This document shows, piece after piece, positions 35,218 to 45,787 of a DNA stretch of 45,787 bases. The DNA lies in assembly GCA_013044075.1 (NCBI GenBank), contig JABEVG010000091.1:1-45787 (forward strand). Reading direction: 5' to 3'. Within the stretch, counting starts at the first letter, position 1; each line of letters begins with the position of its first letter. Made by a program: the position numbers and the translations under genes. The notes beneath the pieces are model-generated. The model was not told the DNA's origin. It did no database searches and saw only the letters and a list, made by a program, of their open reading frames with translations. This DNA is from Gallionella sp. (GTDB lineage Bacteria > Pseudomonadota > Gammaproteobacteria > Burkholderiales > Gallionellaceae).

Positions 35218-35305
35218 GGAAGTTTGGGTGAGTGGTTTAAACCAGCAGTCTTGAAAACTGCCGACGAGAAATCGTCCGTGAGTTCGAATCTCACAGCTTC
35301 CGCCA
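35218..35305 (+). tRNA. tRNA-Ser (anticodon UGA)
   Basis: An 88-base tRNA with a 7-bp acceptor stem (GGAAGTT with AGCTTCC, one G-U pair), anticodon stem GCAGT/ACTGC with loop CTTGAAA (anticodon TGA), a long variable arm typical of serine tRNAs, T-loop GTTCGAATC, and an encoded CCA end. A tyrosine integrase gene starts 176 bp downstream, so its 3' end is the probable attachment site of the island. Confidence 0.95.
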
Positions 35306-35340
35306 GATCACAGTATCACAGAGTCTCAAATATTCCCATA

Positions 35341-35374
35341 AACCCGCACTGTGTATAGCTTTAGCGGGTTTTTT
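35341..35374 (+). terminator. Terminator after tRNA-Ser
   Basis: Stem AACCCGC/GCGGGTT (35341-35347 with 35364-35370), a 16-base loop, and a T-run. Confidence 0.7.
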
Positions 35375-35480
35375 GTTGCCCAAGCGATCTCAATCAATCT
35401 CACTCAAGCTTGCATCTTTTGTCGGTATAAGCCATGCTCATATACCAGCACGGTTAGAATATACCAGCAAAGGGGCAATG

Positions 35481-36713
35481 ATGGCACTGACAGAGCTTGA
35501 GGTTAAAAAAACGAAGGCAACAGACAAACAACAAAAGCTATCCGACGGCGGTGGCATGTATTTGCTGGCGCATCCGAATGGCGGCAAGTATTGGCGAATG
35601 GATTATCGTTTCGGCGGAAAGCAGAAAACCTTATCGCTGGGCATATATCCAGACGTGTCACTTAGCGAAGCACGGGATCGGCGCGAACAGGCGCGCAAGT
35701 TACTTGCAAACGATGCAGACCCAGGCGCGGTGAAGCAGGCGCAAAAGGCCGCGAAGATTGAAGTCGTCTCCAATAGCTTTGCCACGCTTGCCGCTGAATT
35801 CCACAAGATCAAATCTCCCATGTGGACAGTCGGACACGCAAAGCAATGGATGGGCAACTTGGAAAAGTACGCATTGCCCATCATCGGTGATCGCCCCATT
35901 GCCGAGATCGAGCCGATGGAATTAGTCGGCATCATGCGCACCGTTGAGACTAACGGCACATTCGAGACAAGAGATCGTTTGCTGCAAACCATCAGCGCGG
36001 TATTCAAATACGCAATCGCAACAGGCCGAGCCAAATACAATCCAGCAGAAATCCGCAAGGCACTGGCAGATCGCCCAAGGGTTGAACACTTCCCCTGTAT
36101 AACGACTGCGGAAACTCCTGCATTCCTCCGCGCAGTAACGGCCTATCAAAACATGGCCAAGGTCTCACCCATTGCCATCGCTGCGTTACGCCTGCTCATG
36201 CTGGCCGCCACCCGTACCAGCGAAGTGCGCTTTTCTAAATGGACAGACTTCGACCTAGAAGCGAAATGCTGGGTGATCCCTGCTGAACAAACAGGACGTA
36301 AAGGAAAGGGAGACAAGCGGAAAGATCACGCCGTGCCGCTATCCGATCAAGCCGTCAAGATATTGCGCGACCTGCAACCAGTCACAGGGCAAGGCGAATA
36401 TGTATTCCCCAACCGCAACAACTCATCGCGGGTCATCAGTGAAAATACGGTATTGAAAATCATCGAGACCATCGGCTACAAAGGCAAGATGACCGGACAC
36501 GGATTCAGGAGCTTGGCACGTACCGTACTGGGTGATATGGGGCATCGCTGGGAAGTGTTAGAGGCAATGCTCTCCCATGCACTTGTCAACCAGACTGCGG
36601 CAGCATACGTGCGCACCTCATACTTTGAAGAGCGGCGCGGCATCATGCAACAATGGGCTGACTATCTCGACAAGGTCGAAGCAGGTGCGGAAGTCATACC
36701 ATTTCGCGCATAG
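35481..36713 (+). CDS. Tyrosine-recombinase integrase of the island
   Basis: A 410-residue P4-type phage/island integrase. An N-terminal DUF4102 arm-binding domain (MALTELEVKKTKATDKQQKLSDGGGMYLLA) precedes a core-binding domain and the catalytic domain with R245 (TRTSEVRF), H340-x-x-R343 (HGFR), H366 (MLSHA) and tyrosine Y376 (AAYVRTSYFEERR). The ATG at 35481 is 5 bp after AGGGG; another ATG at 35478 is too close. Its location just after tRNA-Ser and pointing inward is the usual layout. All catalytic residues are present. Confidence 0.93.
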   Translation: MALTELEVKKTKATDKQQKLSDGGGMYLLAHPNGGKYWRMDYRFGGKQKTLSLGIYPDVSLSEARDRREQARKLLANDADPGAVKQAQKAAKIEVVSNSFATLAAEFHKIKSPMWTVGHAKQWMGNLEKYALPIIGDRPIAEIEPMELVGIMRTVETNGTFETRDRLLQTISAVFKYAIATGRAKYNPAEIRKALADRPRVEHFPCITTAETPAFLRAVTAYQNMAKVSPIAIAALRLLMLAATRTSEVRFSKWTDFDLEAKCWVIPAEQTGRKGKGDKRKDHAVPLSDQAVKILRDLQPVTGQGEYVFPNRNNSSRVISENTVLKIIETIGYKGKMTGHGFRSLARTVLGDMGHRWEVLEAMLSHALVNQTAAAYVRTSYFEERRGIMQQWADYLDKVEAGAEVIPFRA

Positions 36714-36756
36714 CGTGTTTGCACACGCAACCATCATAAGCAAGTCAGACCAGCCG

Positions 36757-36848
36757 CAGTCTGGTTTATCCAGTCTGCGACAACACCCCGCACAAGAGCA
36801 TCGCTGTTGTGTTTATCAAACAATCCTCAGTCTGGCATCGCCAGTCTG
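36757..36848. repeat. Two pairs of CAGTCTG direct repeats downstream of the integrase
   Basis: CAGTCTG occurs at 36757, 36771, 36828 and 36842: two pairs, each with 14-bp spacing, the pairs 71 bp apart. The form CAGTCTGG-N6-CAGTCTG is shared by both. They could be binding sites for the integrase, an excision factor or the replication protein; none is shown. Confidence 0.5.
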
Positions 36849-36890
36849 TGACCATATCCTTACAAGTGCGCAGCATTTGTGAAGACTCGT

Positions 36891-37175
36891 TTAGTTCAGT
36901 GCAGCCTGTACCGCATCCGGTGCGCGTTTGATGACGTTTAGCAATACTAACGATGCCCCTTGCGGTGAACGATCTCCACGCTCCCAGTGGCGCAAGGTCG
37001 CAACCGAGAATCCAAACCGCGCAGCGAATTGCTCTTGCGTCATTCCCATGCGGCGACGCAGTGCAGAAACATCCACCTCTTCCGGCGTGTAAGTTTTCAC
37101 GGCGACCTTGGCACCTTTCGCATGCGAAATTGCCTCATTCAATCCACGCGCGATACTGTCAAAAGCTTTTCCCAT
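36891..37175 (-). CDS. HigA/NadS-type antitoxin
   Basis: A 94-residue protein with an N-terminal toxin-binding region and a Cro/C1-type helix-turn-helix (RMGMTQEQFAARFGFSVATLRHWERGDRSPQGASLVLL). It lies 3 bp after the toxin gene on the same strand, the toxin-first order of HigBA/NadS systems. It should neutralise the toxin and bind the palindrome upstream of the operon. Confidence 0.88.
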   Translation of the reverse strand: MGKAFDSIARGLNEAISHAKGAKVAVKTYTPEEVDVSALRRRMGMTQEQFAARFGFSVATLRHWERGDRSPQGASLVLLNVIKRAPDAVQAALN

Positions 37176-37178
37176 AAG

Positions 37179-37514
37179 TCACCTCTCAATCCAAGTTGCA
37201 ACCAAAACATCAACCAACTTAGCCAACCCATTACGGTCAGCCTTGCTCAAATTCGCCTGCTCGTTCTTGGCAAACAACGCCACCAAATAAAGCGGCATCA
37301 TTTCGCTGTGGTAGTAGTAGACCACCCGAACCCCGCCACTCTTGCCGCGCCCACCTCTACCCCACCTCAACTTGCGAATACCGCCCGTGCCTTCGATAAG
37401 ATCACCCGATTTCGGATGCGCGGCGAGATAGCTCAACACATCCTGCCGCTCTGCGACGGTTAAGAGTTTCTCCGCTTGGCGGATGTATTCAGGAACTTCG
37501 GCAATCGTAATCAT
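37179..37514 (-). CDS. RelE/HigB-type toxin
   Basis: A 111-residue protein beginning MITIAEVPEYIRQAEKLLTVAERQDVLSYLAAHP. It contains DLIEGTGGIRKLRWGRGGRGKSGGVRVVYYYHSEMMPLYLVALFAKNEQANLSKADRNGL, the GG-x-RKLRW, GVRVVYYY and LFAKNEQANLS pattern of the RelE/HigB group of ribosome-dependent mRNA interferases. The ATG at 37514 fits the family start. It is the first gene of the pair, and the usual catalytic basic residues (R/K) are present. Confidence 0.88.
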   Translation of the reverse strand: MITIAEVPEYIRQAEKLLTVAERQDVLSYLAAHPKSGDLIEGTGGIRKLRWGRGGRGKSGGVRVVYYYHSEMMPLYLVALFAKNEQANLSKADRNGLAKLVDVLVATWIER

Positions 37515-37521
37515 GGCGGAT

Positions 37522-37540
37522 ATTGTAATCCAATGGATTA
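37522..37540 (-). promoter_or_regulatory. Operator palindrome and -10 box of the toxin-antitoxin operon
   Basis: A 15-bp perfect palindrome TAATCCAATGGATTA (37526-37540) overlaps a minus-strand -10 box TACAAT (37527-37522). Binding of the HTH antitoxin here would block the promoter, as is usual for these systems. The -35 box is poor. Confidence 0.6.
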
Positions 37541-37660
37541 GTCGATAGTAAATGATTTTTGCAAAAGGTCGCGCTAAATATTCGTCGTTTGTTGTGCAGC
37601 AACCTAGTGATGACGTATTCTCACGCAAAGTTGTTCGTGTTGAATGACTGCATTTAGAAA

Positions 37661-37759
37661 AGAAAAAGCCCGACAATTTGCACTGTCGGGCTTTGGATAC
37701 AGAACCTTTCAGTTCTTTATTGTAGCAACGGCTCTCACCCCGGATGAACTACTACAACG
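37661..37759 (-). ncRNA. tracrRNA of the type II-C CRISPR system
   Basis: On the minus strand a ~99-base RNA. Its 5' part is the anti-repeat: TTCATCCGGGGTGAGAG (17 bases) is identical to the + strand of the array and so pairs perfectly with the crRNA repeat; after a bulge, GCTACAAT pairs with the repeat end. The stretch GAGAGCCGTTGCTACAATAA differs at one base from my recollection of N. meningitidis tracrRNA. A small hairpin (AGAAC/GTTCT) and a terminator hairpin AAAGCCCGACA/TGTCGGGCTTT (37665-37694) with a following T-run complete it. It is transcribed away from cas9. Confidence 0.92.
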
Positions 37760-37765
37760 GTGAGG

Positions 37766-37795
37766 ATTATCAGGGAGAACAGGCATGACTAGCAA
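37766..37795 (-). promoter_or_regulatory. tracrRNA promoter across the cas9 start codon
   Basis: On the minus strand TTGCTA (37795-37790), 18 bases, then GATAAT (37771-37766). The predicted start near 37759 coincides with the first anti-repeat bases. The boxes flank and overlap the cas9 ATG (37785-37787) and its Shine-Dalgarno GGGAG. Confidence 0.6.
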
Positions 37796-40700
37796 GCATA
37801 AAAATTCGGGCGCACTCACTCTTGGATTAGACATCGGCATTGCTTCGGTTGGCTGGGCGGTACTGGGGGAAGACCGCATCATTGATTTAGGTGTGCGTTG
37901 CTTCGATAAGGCGGAAACCGCCAAAGAAGGTGAATCACTCAACCTTGCCCGCCGCACGGCACGACTGTTGCGCCGTCGCTTACGGCGCAGAGCATGGCGG
38001 CTCACCAAGTTGGCACGCTTGCTTAAACGCGAAGGGCTGATTGCAGATACCAACTTCTTCAAACACAAAATCGAGAAGAACACCACTGCGCCAAAATCGT
38101 CATGGCAATTGCGCGTGGATGCGCTCGACCGCCCACTGAACAACGAAGAATGGGCGCGTGTGATCTATCACCTGTGCAAACATCGCGGCTTCCATTGGAT
38201 TAGTCGCGCCGAAGCCAAACCAATCGAGGGCGATAGCAAGAGTGAAGGCGGCAGGGTTAAGCAAGGCTTGGCTGATACTGAAAAGCTGAAGAAGGCAAAG
38301 AACTACCGTACCGCCGCCGAAATGGTTCTTGCCGAATTCCCAGAGGCACAACGCAACAAACAAGGCGATTACAGCAAAGCTCTTTCTCGCGTGTTACTCA
38401 GCGAAGAATTTGTTCTGTTGTTCCAACGCCAACGCGAGTTGGGTAACCAACACACCAGCGCGGAATTTCAGGAAAAAATTCTCGGCAACGGTGATAAAAA
38501 GAGCGGCTTGTTCTGGGCGCAGAACCCCGCACTGGCAGGCAACGATTTGTTGAAAATGCTGGGTCATTGCACCTTCGAGAAAACCGAATACCGCGCACCC
38601 AAAGCCAGCTTCACCGCCGAACTCCACGTCTGGCTCACCCGGCTCAACAACCTGCGCATCGTGGTGGACGGTACAACTCGACCGCTGAATGAGGCAGAGC
38701 GACACATCGCTCTACTCATGCCTTATCAGCAAGCAGGCGACTTCACCTACAAGCAATTGCGCGCCGCGCTTACCAAAGTGGGCTTTTTGCCTGAGTCGTT
38801 CCGCTATACCGGACTAGCGTATGCCAGCAAACAAAAAGCCGATGAGAAATCCAAAGACCCTGAATCCGCTACGCTAGTGAAACTTCCCGCGTGGCAGGAA
38901 TTACGCAAAACGCTGGAGAAAAAAGAACTCGCATCCGAGTGGCAGAAAATCTCTACCGATGCACTGCACGGCAAGCCGCAGCTGCTCGACCAGATCGCTT
39001 GGGTGTTGAGTGTCTACAAGGACGATACAGAAGTGGAAGCCGAGCTGCGCAAGCTGAACTTGCCCAATGCCGAAAAGATGATCGACGCACTGCTCGATAT
39101 TCGTTTCGACAAGTTCAGCAACCTCTCACTCAAGGCACTGCGCCAAATCGTGCCGTTCATGGAACAAGGCCAGCGTTACGACGAGGCCGTCGCCAACATC
39201 CCGGAATACGGGCATCACAGCCAGTTACACCAAGTCGGCGCGGGCGAACATAAATACCTGCCGCCGTTCTACAAAGAGCGCGACAAGACCGGGCGTATGG
39301 TGTTCAACGATGACATGGACATCCCGCGCAACCCGGTCGTGCTGCGCGCGCTAAATCAGGCGCGCAAGGTGGTGAACGCGCTCATCAAAGAATACGGCGC
39401 ACCGCATGAGGTGCATATCGAAATGGCGCGCGACTTATCACGCCCACTCGATGAACGACGCGAAATAGAAAAACTGCAAAAAGAATTCCGCGACAACAAC
39501 GAAAAAGGCAAAGCTCAGTTCGCTCAAGACTTCAACATTGTGGGCGCAGTCAAAGGCAAAGAGTTTGAAAAATACCAGCTGTATCGTGAACAACAGGGCA
39601 AATGCGCTTATTCAATCGAGCCGATTGATCTGCATCGTTTGTTTGAAACAGGCTATGTGGAAATTGACCACGCTCTGCCCTACTCGCGCAGCTTCGACGA
39701 CAGCAAAAACAACCGGGTTCTGGTGCTCGCAAAAGAAAATCGCGACAAGGGAAACCGCACGCCTTTTGAATATTTGGACGGCAAAAGTGAAAGTGAGCGT
39801 TGGATAAAGTTCGTTCGTAACGTCGAATCGAACAAAGCCTATCGTCTCGCCAAGCGCAGCCGTTTACTGCGCAAAGACTTCGGCGAAAAAGAAGCCAAAG
39901 AATTCCGCGAACGCAACCTGAACGATACCCGTTACATCTGCAAATTCTTCAAGAATTACGTTGAGCAATATCTTCAACTGCATGAAGACAGCGAAGCAAA
40001 ACGCTGCGTGGTGCTCAGCGGCCAGATGACCTCTTTCCTGCGAGCCCGCTGGGGCTTGGTTAAAGTGCGCGGCGACAGCGACCGCCACCACGCGCTGGAT
40101 GCTGCCGTAGTCGCAGCGTGTAGTCACAGTATGGTCAAGCGATTATCCGATTACTCGCGCTGCAAGGAATTGGAACAGGTGCGCGAAGGTTTTGTAGATA
40201 TAGACACGGGCGAGATACTCAACCCGGCGATGTTCGATCAGATCGAAAAGCACTTCCCCAATCCGTGGCCTCATTTCCGAAATGAACTCGAAGCGCGGTT
40301 AAAGATTGACGACATCGCATTTCTGCGCGAAGAAATGAAACGCCTCGGCACATATTCGGAGGAGGCTCTGGAATCACTACGTCCGCTGTTTGTCTCACGC
40401 GCACCGCAACGACGCAACAGCGGTGCGGCGCACAAAGATACTATCTATGCGCAACCGGAACGATTGAAGGCTCAAGGCGGCGTGACGCAAAAAGTCGCGC
40501 TATCCAACCTGACGTTAAAAGACCTTGGAGAAGTCGGCAACGAAGAAGAAACATGCAAGCTTGTCGATTGGCATCGCAACAAAAAACTTTACACCGCTAT
40601 TCGCGCTCGTTTGGAGCAACACGGCGGTAAAGGCGACAAGGCATTTTCTGCCAATAACCCACTGCGCAAACCCGATACCAAGGGCAATCCAACGGGTCCG

Positions 40701-41075
40701 GTAGTGCACGGTGTAACGATGGTCATAGACAAACTCTCCGGCATCCCGATACGCGGCGGTATCGCCAAGAACGACAGTATGGTGCGGGTGGATGTTTTCA
40801 CCAAGGCAAACAAGTTTCATCTCGTGCCTGTATATGTGCAACATTCCGCACCAGTCTCTAAAGGACAAAAGAGGGTACTGCCGAATCGTGCAGTCGTGGC
40901 GTTCAAAGATGAAGCTGAATGGACTCTAATCGACGACAGCTTTGAGTTCTGCTTCTCGCTGCATTCAAATGACCTGGTGCGAGTGCAGCAAAAAGGTAAA
41001 GCTGCCATCGTGGAACTGGAAGCATTAATCTCTGGGCACATGACCGCAGCCTACAAATTGGTAAAGATGGGATGA
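37785..41075 (+). CDS. cas9: Type II-C Cas9 with a frameshifted C-terminus
   Basis: An RNA-guided nuclease of 1096 residues as encoded. RuvC-I is LGLDIGIASVGWAVL (D16), the arginine-rich bridge helix spans about residues 58-85, RuvC-II is HIEMARD (E546), HNH is VEIDHALPYSRSFDDSKNNRVL (D628, H629), and RuvC-III is RHHALDAAVVA (H769, D772). All nuclease residues are intact. The last ~24 residues after VQQKGK do not resemble Cas9. The true tail (SCHRGTGSINLWAHD... to PPEKRRDLA) is intact in another frame at 41000-41182. This indicates a deletion of about 22 bp that removed the strand before the PAM-reading loop and shifted the frame. A GGGAG Shine-Dalgarno lies 7 bp before the ATG. Confidence 0.93.
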   Translation: MTSKHKNSGALTLGLDIGIASVGWAVLGEDRIIDLGVRCFDKAETAKEGESLNLARRTARLLRRRLRRRAWRLTKLARLLKREGLIADTNFFKHKIEKNTTAPKSSWQLRVDALDRPLNNEEWARVIYHLCKHRGFHWISRAEAKPIEGDSKSEGGRVKQGLADTEKLKKAKNYRTAAEMVLAEFPEAQRNKQGDYSKALSRVLLSEEFVLLFQRQRELGNQHTSAEFQEKILGNGDKKSGLFWAQNPALAGNDLLKMLGHCTFEKTEYRAPKASFTAELHVWLTRLNNLRIVVDGTTRPLNEAERHIALLMPYQQAGDFTYKQLRAALTKVGFLPESFRYTGLAYASKQKADEKSKDPESATLVKLPAWQELRKTLEKKELASEWQKISTDALHGKPQLLDQIAWVLSVYKDDTEVEAELRKLNLPNAEKMIDALLDIRFDKFSNLSLKALRQIVPFMEQGQRYDEAVANIPEYGHHSQLHQVGAGEHKYLPPFYKERDKTGRMVFNDDMDIPRNPVVLRALNQARKVVNALIKEYGAPHEVHIEMARDLSRPLDERREIEKLQKEFRDNNEKGKAQFAQDFNIVGAVKGKEFEKYQLYREQQGKCAYSIEPIDLHRLFETGYVEIDHALPYSRSFDDSKNNRVLVLAKENRDKGNRTPFEYLDGKSESERWIKFVRNVESNKAYRLAKRSRLLRKDFGEKEAKEFRERNLNDTRYICKFFKNYVEQYLQLHEDSEAKRCVVLSGQMTSFLRARWGLVKVRGDSDRHHALDAAVVAACSHSMVKRLSDYSRCKELEQVREGFVDIDTGEILNPAMFDQIEKHFPNPWPHFRNELEARLKIDDIAFLREEMKRLGTYSEEALESLRPLFVSRAPQRRNSGAAHKDTIYAQPERLKAQGGVTQKVALSNLTLKDLGEVGNEEETCKLVDWHRNKKLYTAIRARLEQHGGKGDKAFSANNPLRKPDTKGNPTGPVVHGVTMVIDKLSGIPIRGGIAKNDSMVRVDVFTKANKFHLVPVYVQHSAPVSKGQKRVLPNRAVVAFKDEAEWTLIDDSFEFCFSLHSNDLVRVQQKGKAAIVELEALISGHMTAAYKLVKMG

Positions 41076-41182
41076 TTGAAGGCATCGGTGTTAAAACAGC
41101 TTTGAGCATCGAGAAATTCAACGTGGACGTACTCGGCAACCACTACCCAGCCCCGCCGGAGAAACGTCGTGACTTGGCGTAG
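41000..41182 (+). pseudogene. Out-of-frame C-terminal segment of Cas9
   Basis: Sixty codons (stop TAG 41180-41182) open in the -1 frame relative to cas9. They encode SCHRGTGSINLWAHD, then GKDGMIEGIGVKTAL and end in PPEKRRDLA. The segment aligns with the last ~60 residues of N. meningitidis Cas9 as I recall it (ASCHRGTGNINIRIHD...IGVKTALSFQKYQ), including the loop with His1024, Thr1027 and Asn1029 that read the PAM. An ATG at 41072 (overlapping the cas9 stop as ATGA) could start a 36-residue peptide. The segment overlaps the cas1 start by 14 bp, which suggests that the ancestral cas9 and cas1 overlapped. Confidence 0.9.
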
Positions 41183-42074
41183 CATCGTCATCTCACGCCC
41201 CGCCAAGCTGCGGCGCGAGCAATTCCGGCTTGCCGTCGAACAGGAGAAAACTGCGTTCGTACCGTTCGAAGACATCGCGGTGATCGTCCTCAACAACCGC
41301 GAAATAACACTCACCCATCCCGTGCTGTCGGCCTGTGGCGAATATGGCATCAGCCTGTTTGCCACAGGCAACACGCATCATCCCAGCGGTGTATTCCTGC
41401 CTTTCTTATCGCATTCGCGCGCCACACGCTGGCTGCGTCTGCAACTCGACTTGCCGCGCCCTGTCGCCAAACAAACGTGGGCAACCATCGTGCGGCAGAA
41501 AATTGTTAATCAAGCAACGTGCATGCAACTCATGGGATGCGAGGGCACGGATCGGCTGGATTCTTACGCACGGCGCGTGCGCTCGGGCGATGTCGGCAAT
41601 CTAGAAGGACAAGCCGCCGCGTTTTATTTCGCCCAACTTTTTGGCAAAGGCTTTCACCGCGACCAAGCACGCTTCACCAATGCCGCTCTGGACTACGGCT
41701 ATGCGGTGTTGCGCGGCACGATCGCACGCGGCTTAGTGGCGCATGGTCTGTTGCCGTCTCTGGGGATTTTTCACGCCAGCGAACAAAACGCTTTTAATCT
41801 TGCCGACGATGTAATCGAGCCGTTCCGACCGCTGGTGGATTTGTTCGTTGCCAAATACGGCTACGCGCAAGATGACGAATTGCGACCGGAGCACAAGGTC
41901 GCATTAGTCGGGCTGTTGAATGTCGATGTGGCGATGCCGCGCGGCAAAATGTCGGTGCTCTCTGCCATTGAACAGACGATCGAAAGTTTGGCGCGCATCT
42001 ATGACGGCGGTAGTGAGACGCTATTGGAACTACCGATGTTGATTGGATTGGAGCAGCACCGTTTGGAGTGCTGA
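41169..42074 (+). CDS. cas1: CRISPR adaptation integrase Cas1 (type II)
   Basis: A 301-residue metal-dependent integrase that inserts spacers with Cas2. It starts with a GTG at 41169 (MTWRSIVISRPAKLRREQFRL), standard for type II Cas1. The metal-binding residues are E146 (GNLEGQAAAF), H202 (FHASEQNAFNLADD), D213/D214 and E217. Length and motifs are normal, so adaptation should be possible. It sits between cas9 and cas2 and is followed by cas2 after 1 bp. Confidence 0.95.
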   Translation: MTWRSIVISRPAKLRREQFRLAVEQEKTAFVPFEDIAVIVLNNREITLTHPVLSACGEYGISLFATGNTHHPSGVFLPFLSHSRATRWLRLQLDLPRPVAKQTWATIVRQKIVNQATCMQLMGCEGTDRLDSYARRVRSGDVGNLEGQAAAFYFAQLFGKGFHRDQARFTNAALDYGYAVLRGTIARGLVAHGLLPSLGIFHASEQNAFNLADDVIEPFRPLVDLFVAKYGYAQDDELRPEHKVALVGLLNVDVAMPRGKMSVLSAIEQTIESLARIYDGGSETLLELPMLIGLEQHRLEC

Positions 42075-42075
42075 T

Positions 42076-42408
42076 ATGAGCGAGGAGACACGACGGTTTA
42101 TGCGTTTGCTTGTGTTCTTCGACTTACCCGTGGTCAGCAAAGCTGACCGCCGCGCCTACACGGTGTTTCGTCGCTTTTTGCTTAACGACGGATATGACAT
42201 GATTCAGTTTTCGGTTTACGGGCGCATCGTGAATGGCAACGACGCATTGGAAAAACATATGAAGCGATTGGTGAACAGTCTGCCACCCGAAGGTTCGGTG
42301 CGATGTTTAAGTGTCACAGAAAAGCAATATGCGAGTATGAAATTGCTAGTTGGCTTGCCACTTTTTCAAGAAAAAGCTCTCAAGATTAACCAAATGTTGC
42401 TGTTCTAA
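42076..42408 (+). CDS. cas2: CRISPR-associated Cas2
   Basis: A 110-residue ferredoxin-fold partner of Cas1 beginning MSEETRRFMRLLVFFDLPVVSKADRRAYTVFRRFLLNDGYDMIQFSVYGRIV. The LLVFFDLP strand with its aspartate is typical of type II Cas2. The ATG at 42076 lies 1 bp after the cas1 stop, with GGAG upstream; an earlier in-frame codon (42043) lies inside cas1. It is the last cas gene; the array follows after 64 bp. Confidence 0.94.
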   Translation: MSEETRRFMRLLVFFDLPVVSKADRRAYTVFRRFLLNDGYDMIQFSVYGRIVNGNDALEKHMKRLVNSLPPEGSVRCLSVTEKQYASMKLLVGLPLFQEKALKINQMLLF

Positions 42409-42472
42409 GATTAAAATTTTTCAAGCAAAATTCCCTCCTAAGTCAAGCTAGGCGGGCATTTGCGTGAGAGCT

Positions 42473-42844
42473 ATTGTAATTCATCCGGGGTGAGAGAGGG
42501 AGCTACAACATTCGCCGTGCTGGCCAGCATGATGCGCCGATTGTAATTCATCCGGGGTGAGAGAGGGAGCTACAACGGTCGCCTTGATAGATCGTCCCGA
42601 AGTGGAATTGTAATTCATCCGGGGTGAGAGAGGGAGCTACAACGCTTTTGCCGAGGGTTTCCATGTCTACATCATTGTAATTCATCCGGGGTGAGAGAGG
42701 GAGCTACAACGCCTGGCGAACCTTCAATCCATCATCCTGGATTGTAATTCATCCGGGGTGAGAGAGGGAGCTACAACTAATCTTTAGTAATGGTTAAAGG
42801 CATTTCTATTGTAATTCATCCGGGGTGAGAGAGGGAGCTACAAC
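42473..42844 (-). CRISPR. Type II-C CRISPR array, six repeats and five spacers
   Basis: Six identical 37-bp repeats begin at 42473, 42540, 42607, 42674, 42741 and 42808, separated by five spacers of exactly 30 bp (67-bp period). On the + strand the repeat starts ATTGTAATTCATCCGG and ends GGGAGCTACAAC. The crRNA strand is the minus strand (GTTGTAGCTCCC...), as shown by similarity to Neisseria repeats and by complementarity to the tracrRNA. On that strand the repeat ends in TACAAT, a -10 box, as in arrays where each repeat carries a promoter. No repeat is degenerate. Confidence 0.97.
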
Positions 42845-42883
42845 TCTGGATTAAGATGTCCCACAAGGGGACATCCATCCAGA
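42845..42883. other. Strong hairpin abutting the last repeat
   Basis: The sequence directly after the sixth repeat forms TCTGGAT-(3)-GATGTCCC-(5)-GGGACATC-(1)-ATCCAGA: two perfectly paired arms of 7 and 8 bp with small internal loops. No T-run follows in either direction. Further small inverted repeats follow (CGCTTCGC/GCGAAGCG, 42889-42921; TACC/GGTA near 42923-42934). This is the upstream side of the minus-strand array. Confidence 0.7.
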
Positions 42884-43080
42884 GTTATCGCTTCGCGATG
42901 CTTGGCAAAAATGGCGAAGCGTTACCGCCCGGTAGCATAAGGATCGAAGTGAATTTTTTGATTCGCGCACAAGAGTATATTGCAAAGACCGCCCGATAAA
43001 ACGACAGGAATAAATTACTTGCGGCTGTACACAAGTTTTGCTTGGGCTAAACTTCACGGAACTACGCGTCAACTACTTTA

Positions 43081-43968
43081 ATGCTAAAGCCGAACAAAGA
43101 CGCAACCATCAAAGCGGCCATATCGCTGACACCCGTATACACCAAGCTATTTAGGGAGCTACAGAAAAATGGCGGGCGCATAATTTTTCTGCCCGAAATC
43201 GCAGCCAGACAAAATCTCTTTGGTTTTTACGTCATCATGTATGACAACGAGTTGAAATTTAGCGCGGCTTTATCGTTAGCACTCCTGGGTGAAGATCAAT
43301 TTCACAAGTTAAATGCCGAACTCAAAGATGCGTCAAAGGAAGATCAGCAACAGTTTTTGGATGCAATCGTTGAACAAGGCAACTGGGATGAAATACTGAA
43401 ATCTTTTCAAATTCCCAATTCTCCCCAAGAATGGGAAGCGGCGCAAAAACAGTTAGAACTCCTACCGTCAGAAGAACGCCAAGCACTCGAAAAACGAGGC
43501 GGGTTCTTTTGGTCATATTATTTCGGAAGTTTCTTCAACACACTTGCGCTCATGGTTCATGGCGAAAAACTAACCACCTTAGTTCCACAAGCCATCAACG
43601 GCGATGATGATGCTTTCTTAAAAGCCGCTCAAACGGATCGCATGCTTCTTATTCACCACCCCTATTTTCGTGAGCGCAAATTTCGCGCACAAAATGAGGG
43701 CGACAAAAAGTTTTTATTCCGCTTGGCTAATCATGAATCCATCCCTGTCTTGGTCGGCAAAATTCAATTCCCCGGCCTTTACATGCTGTTTGGACTTCTG
43801 GAGTCATTTCAGTGGCTGGACAACCTTGGTGCAACGGAGATTTTAGACATCTGTGTGCAAGCAAATCTTGATCGCTACCAGAATCGAATTGATGACGAGT
43901 GTTATGTATCAAAACGCTTGAGGGAATATCGTCAGTGGCAGAAGACGTTAAGGATGTCAAGGATATGA
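43081..43968 (+). CDS. Island protein of unknown function beside the CRISPR array
   Basis: A 295-residue protein I do not recognise. It has no signal peptide and no clear membrane span; it is mainly helical and rich in Phe, Leu, Glu and Gln. Segments that may help identification are MLKPNKDATIKAAISLTPVY, GGFFWSYYFGSFFNTLALMVHGEKLTTLVPQ, DRMLLIHHPYFRERKFRAQNEGDKKFLFRLANHESIPVLVGKIQFPGLYMLFGLLESF and a basic end RLREYRQWQKTLRM. It is more AT-rich than cas9 or the flanking chromosome, consistent with independent acquisition. No Shine-Dalgarno is seen before the ATG. It is island cargo; a defence role is only a guess from position. Confidence 0.8.
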   Translation: MLKPNKDATIKAAISLTPVYTKLFRELQKNGGRIIFLPEIAARQNLFGFYVIMYDNELKFSAALSLALLGEDQFHKLNAELKDASKEDQQQFLDAIVEQGNWDEILKSFQIPNSPQEWEAAQKQLELLPSEERQALEKRGGFFWSYYFGSFFNTLALMVHGEKLTTLVPQAINGDDDAFLKAAQTDRMLLIHHPYFRERKFRAQNEGDKKFLFRLANHESIPVLVGKIQFPGLYMLFGLLESFQWLDNLGATEILDICVQANLDRYQNRIDDECYVSKRLREYRQWQKTLRMSRI

Positions 43969-44069
43969 AAACCGGTTTTCGTTCCGTTCCTCAGTTCTGC
44001 CTAAGTGCATAAATTCCCCAACCGTTGCAGGGCGCATTCGCAAACCTGCCGACGGCCAGGAGTTTTGCA

Positions 44070-45428
44070 ATGCCCCATCAATCCGACTCAAACAATCCGG
44101 CAAGTTTACCAGTCAGCAACATCACCGAACCCGCCACCCTGCGACCGCACGCCCGGATACACGCGCAGCGTGTAACGGACGGGCAGGAGCAGGGTGGCGG
44201 TGCATCTGAGGGTACGCCGCCCACTAACAGAGTACCCTTAAAATACAATCCCGAACAATCCAAGCTGTTGCGCTTCGGGGTGGATAGCCTGTATCTCTCC
44301 TATCCGGGCGTGATGTCCGAGGACTGGGATAACAAACTCGCCCGCCTCAAAGAACTTGCCCAGCAGGAAGATGATCTCAGCCAGTCCATCGCACAGGTCA
44401 CGATTTGTGAGCATCTGTTCGAGGTACGCGATAAGGGCGCGGGGCGTTTTGCTTATGTGCTGGTAGATAACGCTTACCGCATCCAAGCCAGCAACGCCCG
44501 CTCCAAGTCCCTGCCGCTGGCCTACGTGCAGATTTCCAGCGAGTACCTGACACACGCCGGAATCGAACAGGCCGAACAAGCCCTGCGCCATATCGTCCAC
44601 ACGCTTGGCGTAGTGCATGAACCCGCCAACATCAGCCGCGTGGATTTGTACGCCGATTTCTGCGCCGATTGCGAGATGGACGCGTTTGAACCGCTGCGCG
44701 ATTGGGTGACACGGGTGGAAACCCTGACGCTGCATTACAGTTTCGGGCGTTTCTCCGGCTGGAGCTTCGGATCGGGCGGCGATGTTGTTGCGCGCCTCTA
44801 CGACAAAACTCTCGAAGTCGAAAAGAAGTCGCACAAGTTCTATTTGCACGAGCTGTGGAAGGCTGCCAGATGGGATGGTGAGCGTCAGGTATGGCGCATG
44901 GAATTCGAGGCCAAGCGCAACGCACTGGTGAGCCTGCAACTACCCAAGCTCGCGCACTTGTTGCCGAATCAGGCAGCACTATGGCGATACCTCACCAAGA
45001 ACTGGCTGCGCCTGACTGTGCCGACAGAGACAGATAGCAACCGCGCACGCTGGAGCAATCATCCGCTATGGGATTTCATTACCTCGGCATTCGATTCAAC
45101 AAATGAGCAAGCCAAACTGCAACGCTTCAACCCTGCCCGCTTACCCGAAGATGAGCGGCTGTTCGTGCATGGTCTGGGGGCGATTACCTCGTTCATGGCC
45201 AGCCGTGGCATCGAGGACATCGGCGAAGGGATCGGCGAGTATGTGCATCAAGCCAAGGCGTATCACGTCACCCGCTCCGGCTTTAAGCCCGACGGGATGG
45301 AGCGTTATGTCGGGCGCAAGGTGAAGGCCAAGAACCGCCTTTATAACACCGTGCTGAATGCACAGCCGCCCGAACATCAATCAATCGAAACCGCCCACCA
45401 GCGGGCGAAGGATGGCGGTAATGAATAA
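44070..45428 (+). CDS. Replication initiation factor-like protein (Rep_trans type)
   Basis: A 452-residue protein. After a flexible N-terminal ~65 residues, the region LRFGVDSLYLSYPG to RVDLYADFCADCEM to VARLYDKTLEVEKKSHKFYLHELWKAARW to VWRMEFEAKRNAL matches the Rep_trans/replication-initiator pattern of rolling-circle plasmids, phages and integrative elements, with RLYDKT and RMEFE as conserved parts. The ATG at 44070 has AGGAG 7 bp upstream, so I prefer it to 44025. It overlaps the downstream AlpA-like gene by 8 bp. It suggests that the island can replicate after excision. Confidence 0.82.
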   Translation: MPHQSDSNNPASLPVSNITEPATLRPHARIHAQRVTDGQEQGGGASEGTPPTNRVPLKYNPEQSKLLRFGVDSLYLSYPGVMSEDWDNKLARLKELAQQEDDLSQSIAQVTICEHLFEVRDKGAGRFAYVLVDNAYRIQASNARSKSLPLAYVQISSEYLTHAGIEQAEQALRHIVHTLGVVHEPANISRVDLYADFCADCEMDAFEPLRDWVTRVETLTLHYSFGRFSGWSFGSGGDVVARLYDKTLEVEKKSHKFYLHELWKAARWDGERQVWRMEFEAKRNALVSLQLPKLAHLLPNQAALWRYLTKNWLRLTVPTETDSNRARWSNHPLWDFITSAFDSTNEQAKLQRFNPARLPEDERLFVHGLGAITSFMASRGIEDIGEGIGEYVHQAKAYHVTRSGFKPDGMERYVGRKVKAKNRLYNTVLNAQPPEHQSIETAHQRAKDGGNE

Positions 45429-45681
45429 GCACGACTACAACTGCCAAGAGGCTGCACATTCGTGCGAGACAGGAACAGCAAATCAACAACAAACTGCTGA
45501 CTACCTATTACCGCGCAAGACCGTTGAGAAACTTTCAGGACTGAGCAGGGCAACAATTTACCGCTTAATAAAATCAGGAAAATTTCCACGTCCCTTATCC
45601 ATCGGTACGGGCTCAGTACGTTGGCGGCAATCCGACGTGATAGCTTGGCAACAATCACTTAGTCCAAGCTCTAGCAAATGA
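45421..45681 (+). CDS. AlpA-family transcriptional regulator/excisionase
   Basis: An 86-residue DNA-binding protein with a MerR/AlpA-like winged helix: YLLPRKTVEKLSGLSRATIYRLIKSGKFPRPLSIGTGSVRWRQSDVIAWQQSL. AlpA proteins activate excision genes of prophages and islands. The ATG at 45421 lies inside the end of the rep gene (8-bp overlap), so the two are co-translated. An ATG at 45412 is an alternative. Confidence 0.88.
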   Translation: MNKHDYNCQEAAHSCETGTANQQQTADYLLPRKTVEKLSGLSRATIYRLIKSGKFPRPLSIGTGSVRWRQSDVIAWQQSLSPSSSK

Positions 45682-45787
45682 AAATTTATCAGTAGTGTCC
45701 GGTTAACTTAGAAACATCCGAGCCAAGGTTGAGTACTGGCGCGGGTTGCAGGGCAATTTATTTTGGTGCCGATTTGAAATCAGTTTA

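What the first reader, a model, noticed from the sequence alone, without database searches (positions are those of the whole stretch)
40980..41182. Cas9 carries a ~22-bp deletion and frameshift that removes the PAM-reading loop
cas9 reads normally to VQQKGK (codon at 40998-41000), then continues with ~24 non-homologous residues to TGA 41075. The -1 frame from 41000 encodes the correct C-terminal tail (SCHRGTGSINLWAHD ... IGVKTALSIEKF ... PPEKRRDLA). N. meningitidis Cas9 (from memory) has about seven more residues (RMFGYFA) between the corresponding points, so a deletion of 22 bp fits both the missing residues and the frame. The segment includes the equivalents of His1024/Thr1027/Asn1029, which read the PAM. 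The protein therefore keeps RuvC and HNH but should have lost PAM recognition, while cas1, cas2, tracrRNA and identical repeats remain. This may be a recent inactivation, a change of function, or an assembly artefact.
Basis: partly seen in the sequence, partly recalled or inferred. Interest (0 to 1): 0.88.

Follow-up and report, generated by a model that had tools for sequence, protein, structure and literature searches.

The report
Recently broken Cas9 gene
A freshwater bacterium's Cas9 gene has lost a short piece of DNA that scrambles the end of the protein needed to recognise targets, so its CRISPR immune system was probably switched off recently by an ordinary mutation.

Summary
cas9 (37785-41075) is a type II-C, NmeCas9-like gene whose C-terminal 60 codons (41000-41182) lie in the -1 frame. 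Among relatives scoring 700 bits or more, all 48 distinct tails that could be read have that tail in frame after an invariant G-Y-[YF]. The window lacks this piece. The best fit is a 25-bp deletion, not 22. The junction AGCTGCCATC (41000-41009) fits both flanks, as expected from slippage between 10-nt direct repeats. The deletion spares the PAM-reading codons (equivalents of H1024, T1027, N1029); the frameshift takes them out of the protein.

The lesion looks recent. Body and out-of-frame tail are both conserved (dN/dS 0.093 and 0.068 against L023). The 14-nt cas9/cas1 overlap, tracrRNA, cas1, cas2 and array remain. No self-targeting spacer and no second cas9 or cas1 was found. No readable relative tail uses the new end, and recoding is unsupported. 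The simplest reading is an ordinary recent loss of Cas9 interference; 4 of 44 readable relatives carry their own cas9 lesions, and degraded Cas9 systems are published. An assembly or minority-allele artefact is unlikely but not excluded, because reads are not held.

The parts
37785..41075 (+). cas9, type II-C, 1096 aa as encoded; RuvC and HNH motifs intact, C-terminus frameshifted
   Evidence: ORF; TIGR01865 748 bits; NmeCas9 homologue; motifs
41000..41009 (+). deletion junction AGCTGCCATC: reads as AAI of the left flank (frame 0) and SCH of the right flank (-1 frame); single copy left of an inferred 10-nt direct repeat; about 25 bp missing
41010..41075 (+). novel out-of-frame end of the encoded Cas9 (21 residues), to TGA 41073-41075
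   Evidence: not the end of any of 48 distinct readable relative tails
41000..41182 (+). original Cas9 C-terminal 60 codons plus stop, now in the -1 frame; contains the equivalents of NmeCas9 H1024, T1027 and (as Ser) N1029
41072..41182 (+). possible reinitiation ORF (36 aa, ATG overlapping the TGA as ATGA) in the original tail frame; inference only
   Evidence: sequence; tail-frame translation
41169..42074 (+). cas1 (GTG start), overlapping the original cas9 frame by 14 nt as in 45 of 46 relatives
42076..42408 (+). cas2
42473..42844 (-). CRISPR array: 6 identical 37-nt repeats, 5 spacers of 30 nt; transcription on the minus strand inferred from the anti-repeat
37655..37752 (-). predicted tracrRNA (ends approximate): anti-repeat 37720-37752, stem-loops, intrinsic terminator
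   Evidence: no Rfam match

Best explanation
This is a recent, ordinary loss-of-function mutation of a type II-C cas9. A deletion of about 25 bp, most likely by slipped mispairing between two 10-nt direct repeats (AGCTGCCATC), removed the strand that precedes the PAM-reading turn and shifted the frame. The encoded Cas9 keeps the RuvC and HNH motifs and the body that should bind guide RNA. It lacks the last strands of the PAM-interacting domain, including the PAM-reading residues. It should therefore fail to license target DNA, so interference, and probably PAM-guided spacer choice, are lost. cas1, cas2, tracrRNA and array remain because too little time has passed for them to decay. Shown: the frames, the junction, the homology and the conserved surroundings. 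Inferred: the slippage mechanism, the loss of activity and the recency.
For: Among relatives of 700 bits or more, all 48 distinct tails that could be read have G-Y-[YF] and the C-terminal tail in the cas9 frame. The window's tail in the -1 frame has no stop for 60 codons and differs from L023 by 19 synonymous and 7 non-synonymous changes (dN/dS 0.068; body 0.093). The 14-nt cas9/cas1 overlap seen in 45 of 46 relatives is kept only by the -1 frame. Junction residues AAI fit the left-flank profile of 11 relatives; out-of-frame triplets of the same gene score as well in 0 of 1068 and 1 of 1069 cases, which supports microhomology. The window breaks 1 of 253 otherwise invariant columns, within the range 0-8 of the 42 other sequences. 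The tail aligns with NmeCas9 1022-1070; Q981, H1024, T1027 and N1029 are reported as crucial for PAM recognition (PMC9433092, passages). Best AlphaFold model of the encoded C-terminal region: pLDDT 39 and 35 in its last two blocks and no strand after residue 207, against 57-90 and five strands (205-260) in L023. Only one cas9 and one cas1 in the assembly.
Against: No read data are held, so a minority or chimeric allele in the MAG cannot be ruled out. The ancestral double repeat is inferred: none of the 16 relatives viewed carries both exact copies (L047 has the right copy). The structural comparison is weak: pTM 0.45 and 0.51, 22-23 sequences, and only the best of five L023 models (mean pLDDT 72.6; the others 51.6-59.6) beats the window's five (58.3-63.9). 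Parts of the window model upstream of the lesion are poor too (residues 148-176 mostly under 50). Loss of activity was not measured; a naturally split Cas9 in L. salivarius may keep some activity (PMC11288051, passages). No self-targeting spacer explains selection for loss.
Confidence: 0.8

Rival explanations
1. Assembly or binning artefact: the population's majority allele is intact and the contig carries a chimeric or minority variant.
For: The genome is a fragmented assembly of 124 contigs, 93% complete; no read coverage is available.
Against: The lesion is not in a homopolymer, and its junction has a biologically typical 10-nt repeat signature, far shorter than usual assembly k-mers (recalled). 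Ten neighbouring ORFs each match at least one family, several nearly full length (ClpB 1-852/853, SelD 3-343/347, DapA 1-283/286); this is a weak check, because they were chosen from the long ORFs. No second cas9 piece exists in the assembly.
Confidence: 0.13
2. Changed function: the truncated Cas9, guide-binding but PAM-blind, is kept for another task (crRNA stabilisation, RNA-directed or regulatory binding).
For: The body is under strong purifying selection in pairwise comparison; tracrRNA and array are intact; a further in-frame 6-residue insertion sits in the PAM-interacting domain.
Against: The out-of-frame tail is just as conserved, which dates the lesion as recent rather than ancient and functional. 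None of 48 distinct readable relative tails ends this way; the ten matches to the new end listed (list cut at ten) all lie one frame off the relatives' cas9, by their coordinates.
Confidence: 0.04
3. Natural split or recoded Cas9: the tail is still made, by termination-reinitiation at ATGA 41072 or by -1 frameshifting, and completes the protein.
For: The TGA overlaps an ATG in the tail frame (41072-41075). A split Cas9 that may keep some activity is published (PMC11288051, passages).
Against: Reinitiation at 41072 would give only the last 36 residues, without SCHRGTG. A TAA at 40997-40999 blocks a shift before the junction, and going through the codons from 40998 to 41075 by eye I found no X XXY YYZ heptamer. 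The conserved G-Y-[YF] is absent whatever the frame.
Confidence: 0.03

Closest known systems
NmeCas9 (Neisseria meningitidis type II-C Cas9, PDB 6jdv, 6kc8, 8ja0)
   Same: Same family along the body (phmmer E 8e-219 over residues 7-1070), RuvC and HNH motifs, and the SCHRGTG tail encoded out of frame.
   Different: The encoded protein ends in an unrelated stretch and lacks the last strands of the PAM-interacting domain.
Inactivated or degraded type II systems of Mollicutes (PMC6882279; section 19 and passages read)
   Same: A frameshifted cas9 is described (M. arthritidis); at least 8 of 21 systems are predicted inactivated or degraded.
   Different: There two cas9 mutations coincide with self-targeting spacers; none was found here. 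The lesion and host group differ.
Split cas9 of Ligilactobacillus salivarius NCK 1355 (PMC11288051; passages read)
   Same: cas9 is split into two coding sequences while array and other cas genes remain.
   Different: It is a type II-A system whose split differs from single-frame strains by one base; here about 25 bp with conserved residues are missing.
II-C relatives of the Gallionellales/Nitrosomonadales with intact cas9 (e.g. L024, L033, L063)
   Same: cas9-cas1-cas2-array order, similar repeats, 14-nt cas9/cas1 overlap.
   Different: Their Cas9 C-terminus is in frame.

Membership tests
Type II-C CRISPR-Cas locus | cas9, cas1, cas2 and array, with no csn2 or cas4 | tested here: met
   Families; array. 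None of the 9 proteins scanned around the array matches csn2 or cas4 alone.
Type II-C CRISPR-Cas locus | tracrRNA with anti-repeat complementary to the repeat | tested here: met
   Anti-repeat 37720-37752 found by alignment, terminator hairpin by folding; not matched by Rfam
Cas9 (TIGR01865) | RuvC I-III and HNH motifs | tested here: met
   LGLDIGIAS, HIEMARD, EIDHALP and DRHHALDAA present (motif roles recalled); 748 bits against cut-off 100
Functional Cas9 | complete PAM-interacting domain with the PAM-reading residues | tested here: not met
   Equivalents of H1024, T1027 and N1029 lie out of frame; the region before them is deleted
Functional Cas9 | RNA-guided DNA cleavage | not testable with these tools
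   needs protein or cell assays
Pseudogene by recent mutation | frame-breaking lesion, with both sides of it still conserved and intact relatives existing | tested here: met
Programmed -1 frameshift gene | slippery site where frame 0 and the -1 frame overlap without a stop | tested here: not met
   TAA at 40997-40999 in the -1 frame; no X XXY YYZ heptamer between 40998 and 41075, gone through by eye

The most novel reading that the evidence does not exclude
A naturally PAM-blind Cas9: the truncated protein still binds crRNA and tracrRNA and acts without PAM licensing, for example as a guide-RNA sink, an RNA-directed binder or a PAM-free partner of Cas1-Cas2, and is maintained by selection.
Probability: 0.03. 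Interest if true: 0.75.

Novelty: new member of a known kind. Interest (0 to 1): 0.2.

Why it matters
It is a clear natural example of how type II interference can be lost: one slippage event in the PAM-interacting domain, caught before the rest of the locus decayed. Stops or frame changes were seen in cas9 of 4 of 44 readable relatives and in cas1 of 0 of 46. If that bias held in a larger, length-corrected sample, it would suggest that the effector goes first. The present numbers do not show it, because cas9 is about 3.6 times longer than cas1.

Tried and rejected
Self-targeting as the reason for loss: the whole array was compared with the assembly; apart from the array itself and the anti-repeat, nothing longer than 22 nt matched at E up to 10. 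Not supported, though the assembly is only 93% complete.

Phage targets: the first 22 nt (seed side, + strand) of each of the 5 spacers had 0 exact matches in viral contigs. The full 30 nt, mismatches, and the phage and plasmid record collections were not tried, so PAM and targets remain unknown.

Second CRISPR system or intact cas9 copy: one cas9 and one cas1 only in the assembly.

Programmed frameshift and reinitiation: judged unlikely.

Conserved alternative tail: rejected (the list was cut at ten rows).

Base rate of cas9 lesions: 47 loci (L023-L069) examined; L064 (cut by contig end), L062 and L067 (runs of N) set aside; L032 is readable only from residue 95. 4 of 44 carry a stop or frame change (L023, L025, L049, L069). 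cas1 0 of 46 and cas2 0 of 43 by the same test (loci without a match not counted), although cas2 of L038 matched only over residues 1-38. With the length difference this is no shown bias. A class-wide draw (369 genomes, 28 with a match, own genome included) added few close homologues.

Rows dropped: only loci of 700 bits or more were used for tails; L064 and L067 had no readable tail. The conservation test used only loci from L023 onward, without L032, L049, L062, L064, L067, L070 and duplicates. For the fold alignments 22 of the 26 relatives listed were used: L009 was left out because it came from the genome search, and L028, L057 and L060 because their fragments start at other points.

Full report
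What is there. The window is a whole contig (C57) of a 2.2-Mb, 124-contig assembly, 93% complete. The closest Cas9 relatives with names are Gallionellales/Nitrosomonadales assemblies; a same-genus genome (L004) has the same Cas9 tail as L024, Gallionellales bacterium GWA2_60_142. The locus is type II-C: tracrRNA (minus strand, about 37655-37752), cas9 37785-41075, cas1 41169-42074, cas2 42076-42408, and an array of six identical 37-nt repeats with five 30-nt spacers at 42473-42844.

The lesion. Frame 0 of cas9 reads ...VQQKGK-AAI and then VELEALISGHMTAAYKLVKMG to TGA 41073-41075. The -1 frame reads SCHRGTGSINLWAHDRSLQIGKDGMIEGIGVKTALSIEKFNVDVLGNHYPAPPEKRRDLA from 41000 to 41182. That piece alone matches NmeCas9 1022-1070 at E 5e-14. 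Among relatives of 700 bits or more, 48 distinct tails could be read, and all 48 carry G-Y-[YF] followed by the tail in the cas9 frame; two more (L064, cut by the contig end; L067, with runs of N) could not be read. The window lacks the G-Y-[YF] stretch in every frame.

Size and mechanism. Eleven of the 48 have the SCHRG-type tail. Ten of them share a Q-x-x-K context, with eight codons between that K and the S of SCHRG; L040 has another residue there but the same spacing. In the window the S codon starts 2 nt after the start of the K codon instead of 27 nt, so 25 bp are missing, not 22. The ten bases at 41000-41009 (AGCTGCCATC) fit both sides: read in frame 0 they give AAI, as in L008 and L052; read in the -1 frame they give SCH. 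Scored against the profile of the 11 relatives, AAI was equalled by 0 of 1068 and 1 of 1069 out-of-frame triplets of the same gene. The junction therefore most likely kept one copy of a 10-nt direct repeat, the signature of slipped-strand deletion (mechanism from general knowledge; one search gave a listing only). None of the 16 relatives viewed holds both copies exactly; L047 has the right-hand copy.

Consequence. Residues Q981, H1024, T1027 and N1029 of Nme1Cas9 are reported as crucial for PAM recognition (PMC9433092, passages, citing Sun et al. 2019, not read). The equivalents of H1024 and T1027, and a Ser in place of N1029, are still encoded at 41006-41023, but out of frame. The best AlphaFold models of the C-terminal region agree. 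The window's version falls to pLDDT 39 and 35 in its last two blocks and shows no strand after residue 207. L023, intact in this region, has five further strands (205-260) at 57-90. This is weak support: pTM is 0.45 and 0.51; only the best of five L023 models (72.6) is better than the window's (58.3-63.9), the other four being 51.6-59.6; and the window model is also poor at residues 148-176, upstream of the lesion. Both models match Nme1Cas9 structures best (window: E 9.1e-12 over 183 columns; L023: E 9.5e-23 over 234). RuvC and HNH motifs are intact. Loss of interference is thus inferred, not shown.

Age. Against L023, dN/dS is 0.093 for the body, 0.068 for the out-of-frame tail (19 synonymous, 7 non-synonymous changes) and 0.065 for cas1. 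For the tail the values against 11 relatives range from 0.051 to 0.369, the two highest being L026 (0.287) and L029 (0.369), whose tails are quite different. The window breaks 1 of 253 otherwise invariant columns upstream of the lesion, within the range 0-8 of the 42 other sequences. cas9 and cas1 overlap by 14 nt in 45 of 46 relatives, and the window keeps this only through the tail frame. All this points to a recent event. dS is near 1 even to the nearest relatives, so the date cannot be made sharper.

Alternatives. Artefact: not excluded, because reads are not held. Against it, the junction is not of a homopolymer type, no second cas9 piece exists, and ten neighbouring ORFs each match a family (weak, since they were chosen from the long ORFs). 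Functional alternative tail: the ten matches to it listed among relatives (list cut at ten) all lie one frame off their cas9. Recoding: a TAA at 40997-40999 closes the -1 frame just before the tail, and no slippery heptamer follows (by eye). Reinitiation at ATGA 41072-41075 could make the last 36 residues but not the PAM-reading turn; it might help keep ribosomes on the message towards cas1 (inference).

Context. Lesions in cas9 are not rare here: 4 of 44 readable relatives (L023 TAA at residue 160, L025 TAG at 686, L069 TAA at 90, L049 frame change near 170), against 0 of 46 for cas1. Given the length difference no bias is shown. The literature holds inactivated or degraded systems in at least 8 of 21 mollicute cases (PMC6882279, section 19) and a split cas9 in L. 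salivarius that may keep some activity (PMC11288051, passages). One search for papers holding all of Gallionella, CRISPR, Cas9 and type II-C found none, and searches on inactivated cas9 (listings) showed no report of this case; other wordings were not tried. No self-targeting was found, and the spacers' targets are unknown.

Verdict.

Noticed in passing
window 40851-40868 (Cas9 residues about 1023-1028): A window-only in-frame insertion of 6 residues (about PVSKGQ; placement uncertain) with a gap in all 42 other Cas9 sequences aligned, in the PAM-interacting domain upstream of the lesion; it may have altered PAM preference.
   Followed up: partly
window 35218-45787: The CRISPR-Cas locus sits beside a tRNA-Ser gene (35218-35305) and a tyrosine integrase (35475-36713), with a HTH/RelE-like pair (36891-37676, minus) and an AlpA-like regulator (45358-45681) near the contig end: it looks like part of a tRNA-integrated island. 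No repeat of the tRNA end of 13 nt or more was found in 36700-45787; of the relatives' stored flanks only L056 showed a similar integrase and AlpA.
   Followed up: partly
L023:6478, L025:8056, L069:6253, L049 near 6460: Independent stops or a frame change in cas9 of related genomes, with cas1 and cas2 free of stops and frame changes.
   Followed up: partly
L038:10225-12853: cas2 matches only over residues 1-38 and the array lies about 2.2 kb further on than in relatives, suggesting an insertion in or after cas2.
   Followed up: no
window 43081-45428: Two ORFs (295 and 467 aa) without any Pfam or NCBIfam match at E 0.001 lie between the array and the AlpA-like gene.
   Followed up: no
window 42836-42892: A hairpin at the last repeat (arms 42836-42851 and 42877-42892, 88% complementary), on the inferred leader side of the array.
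   Followed up: no
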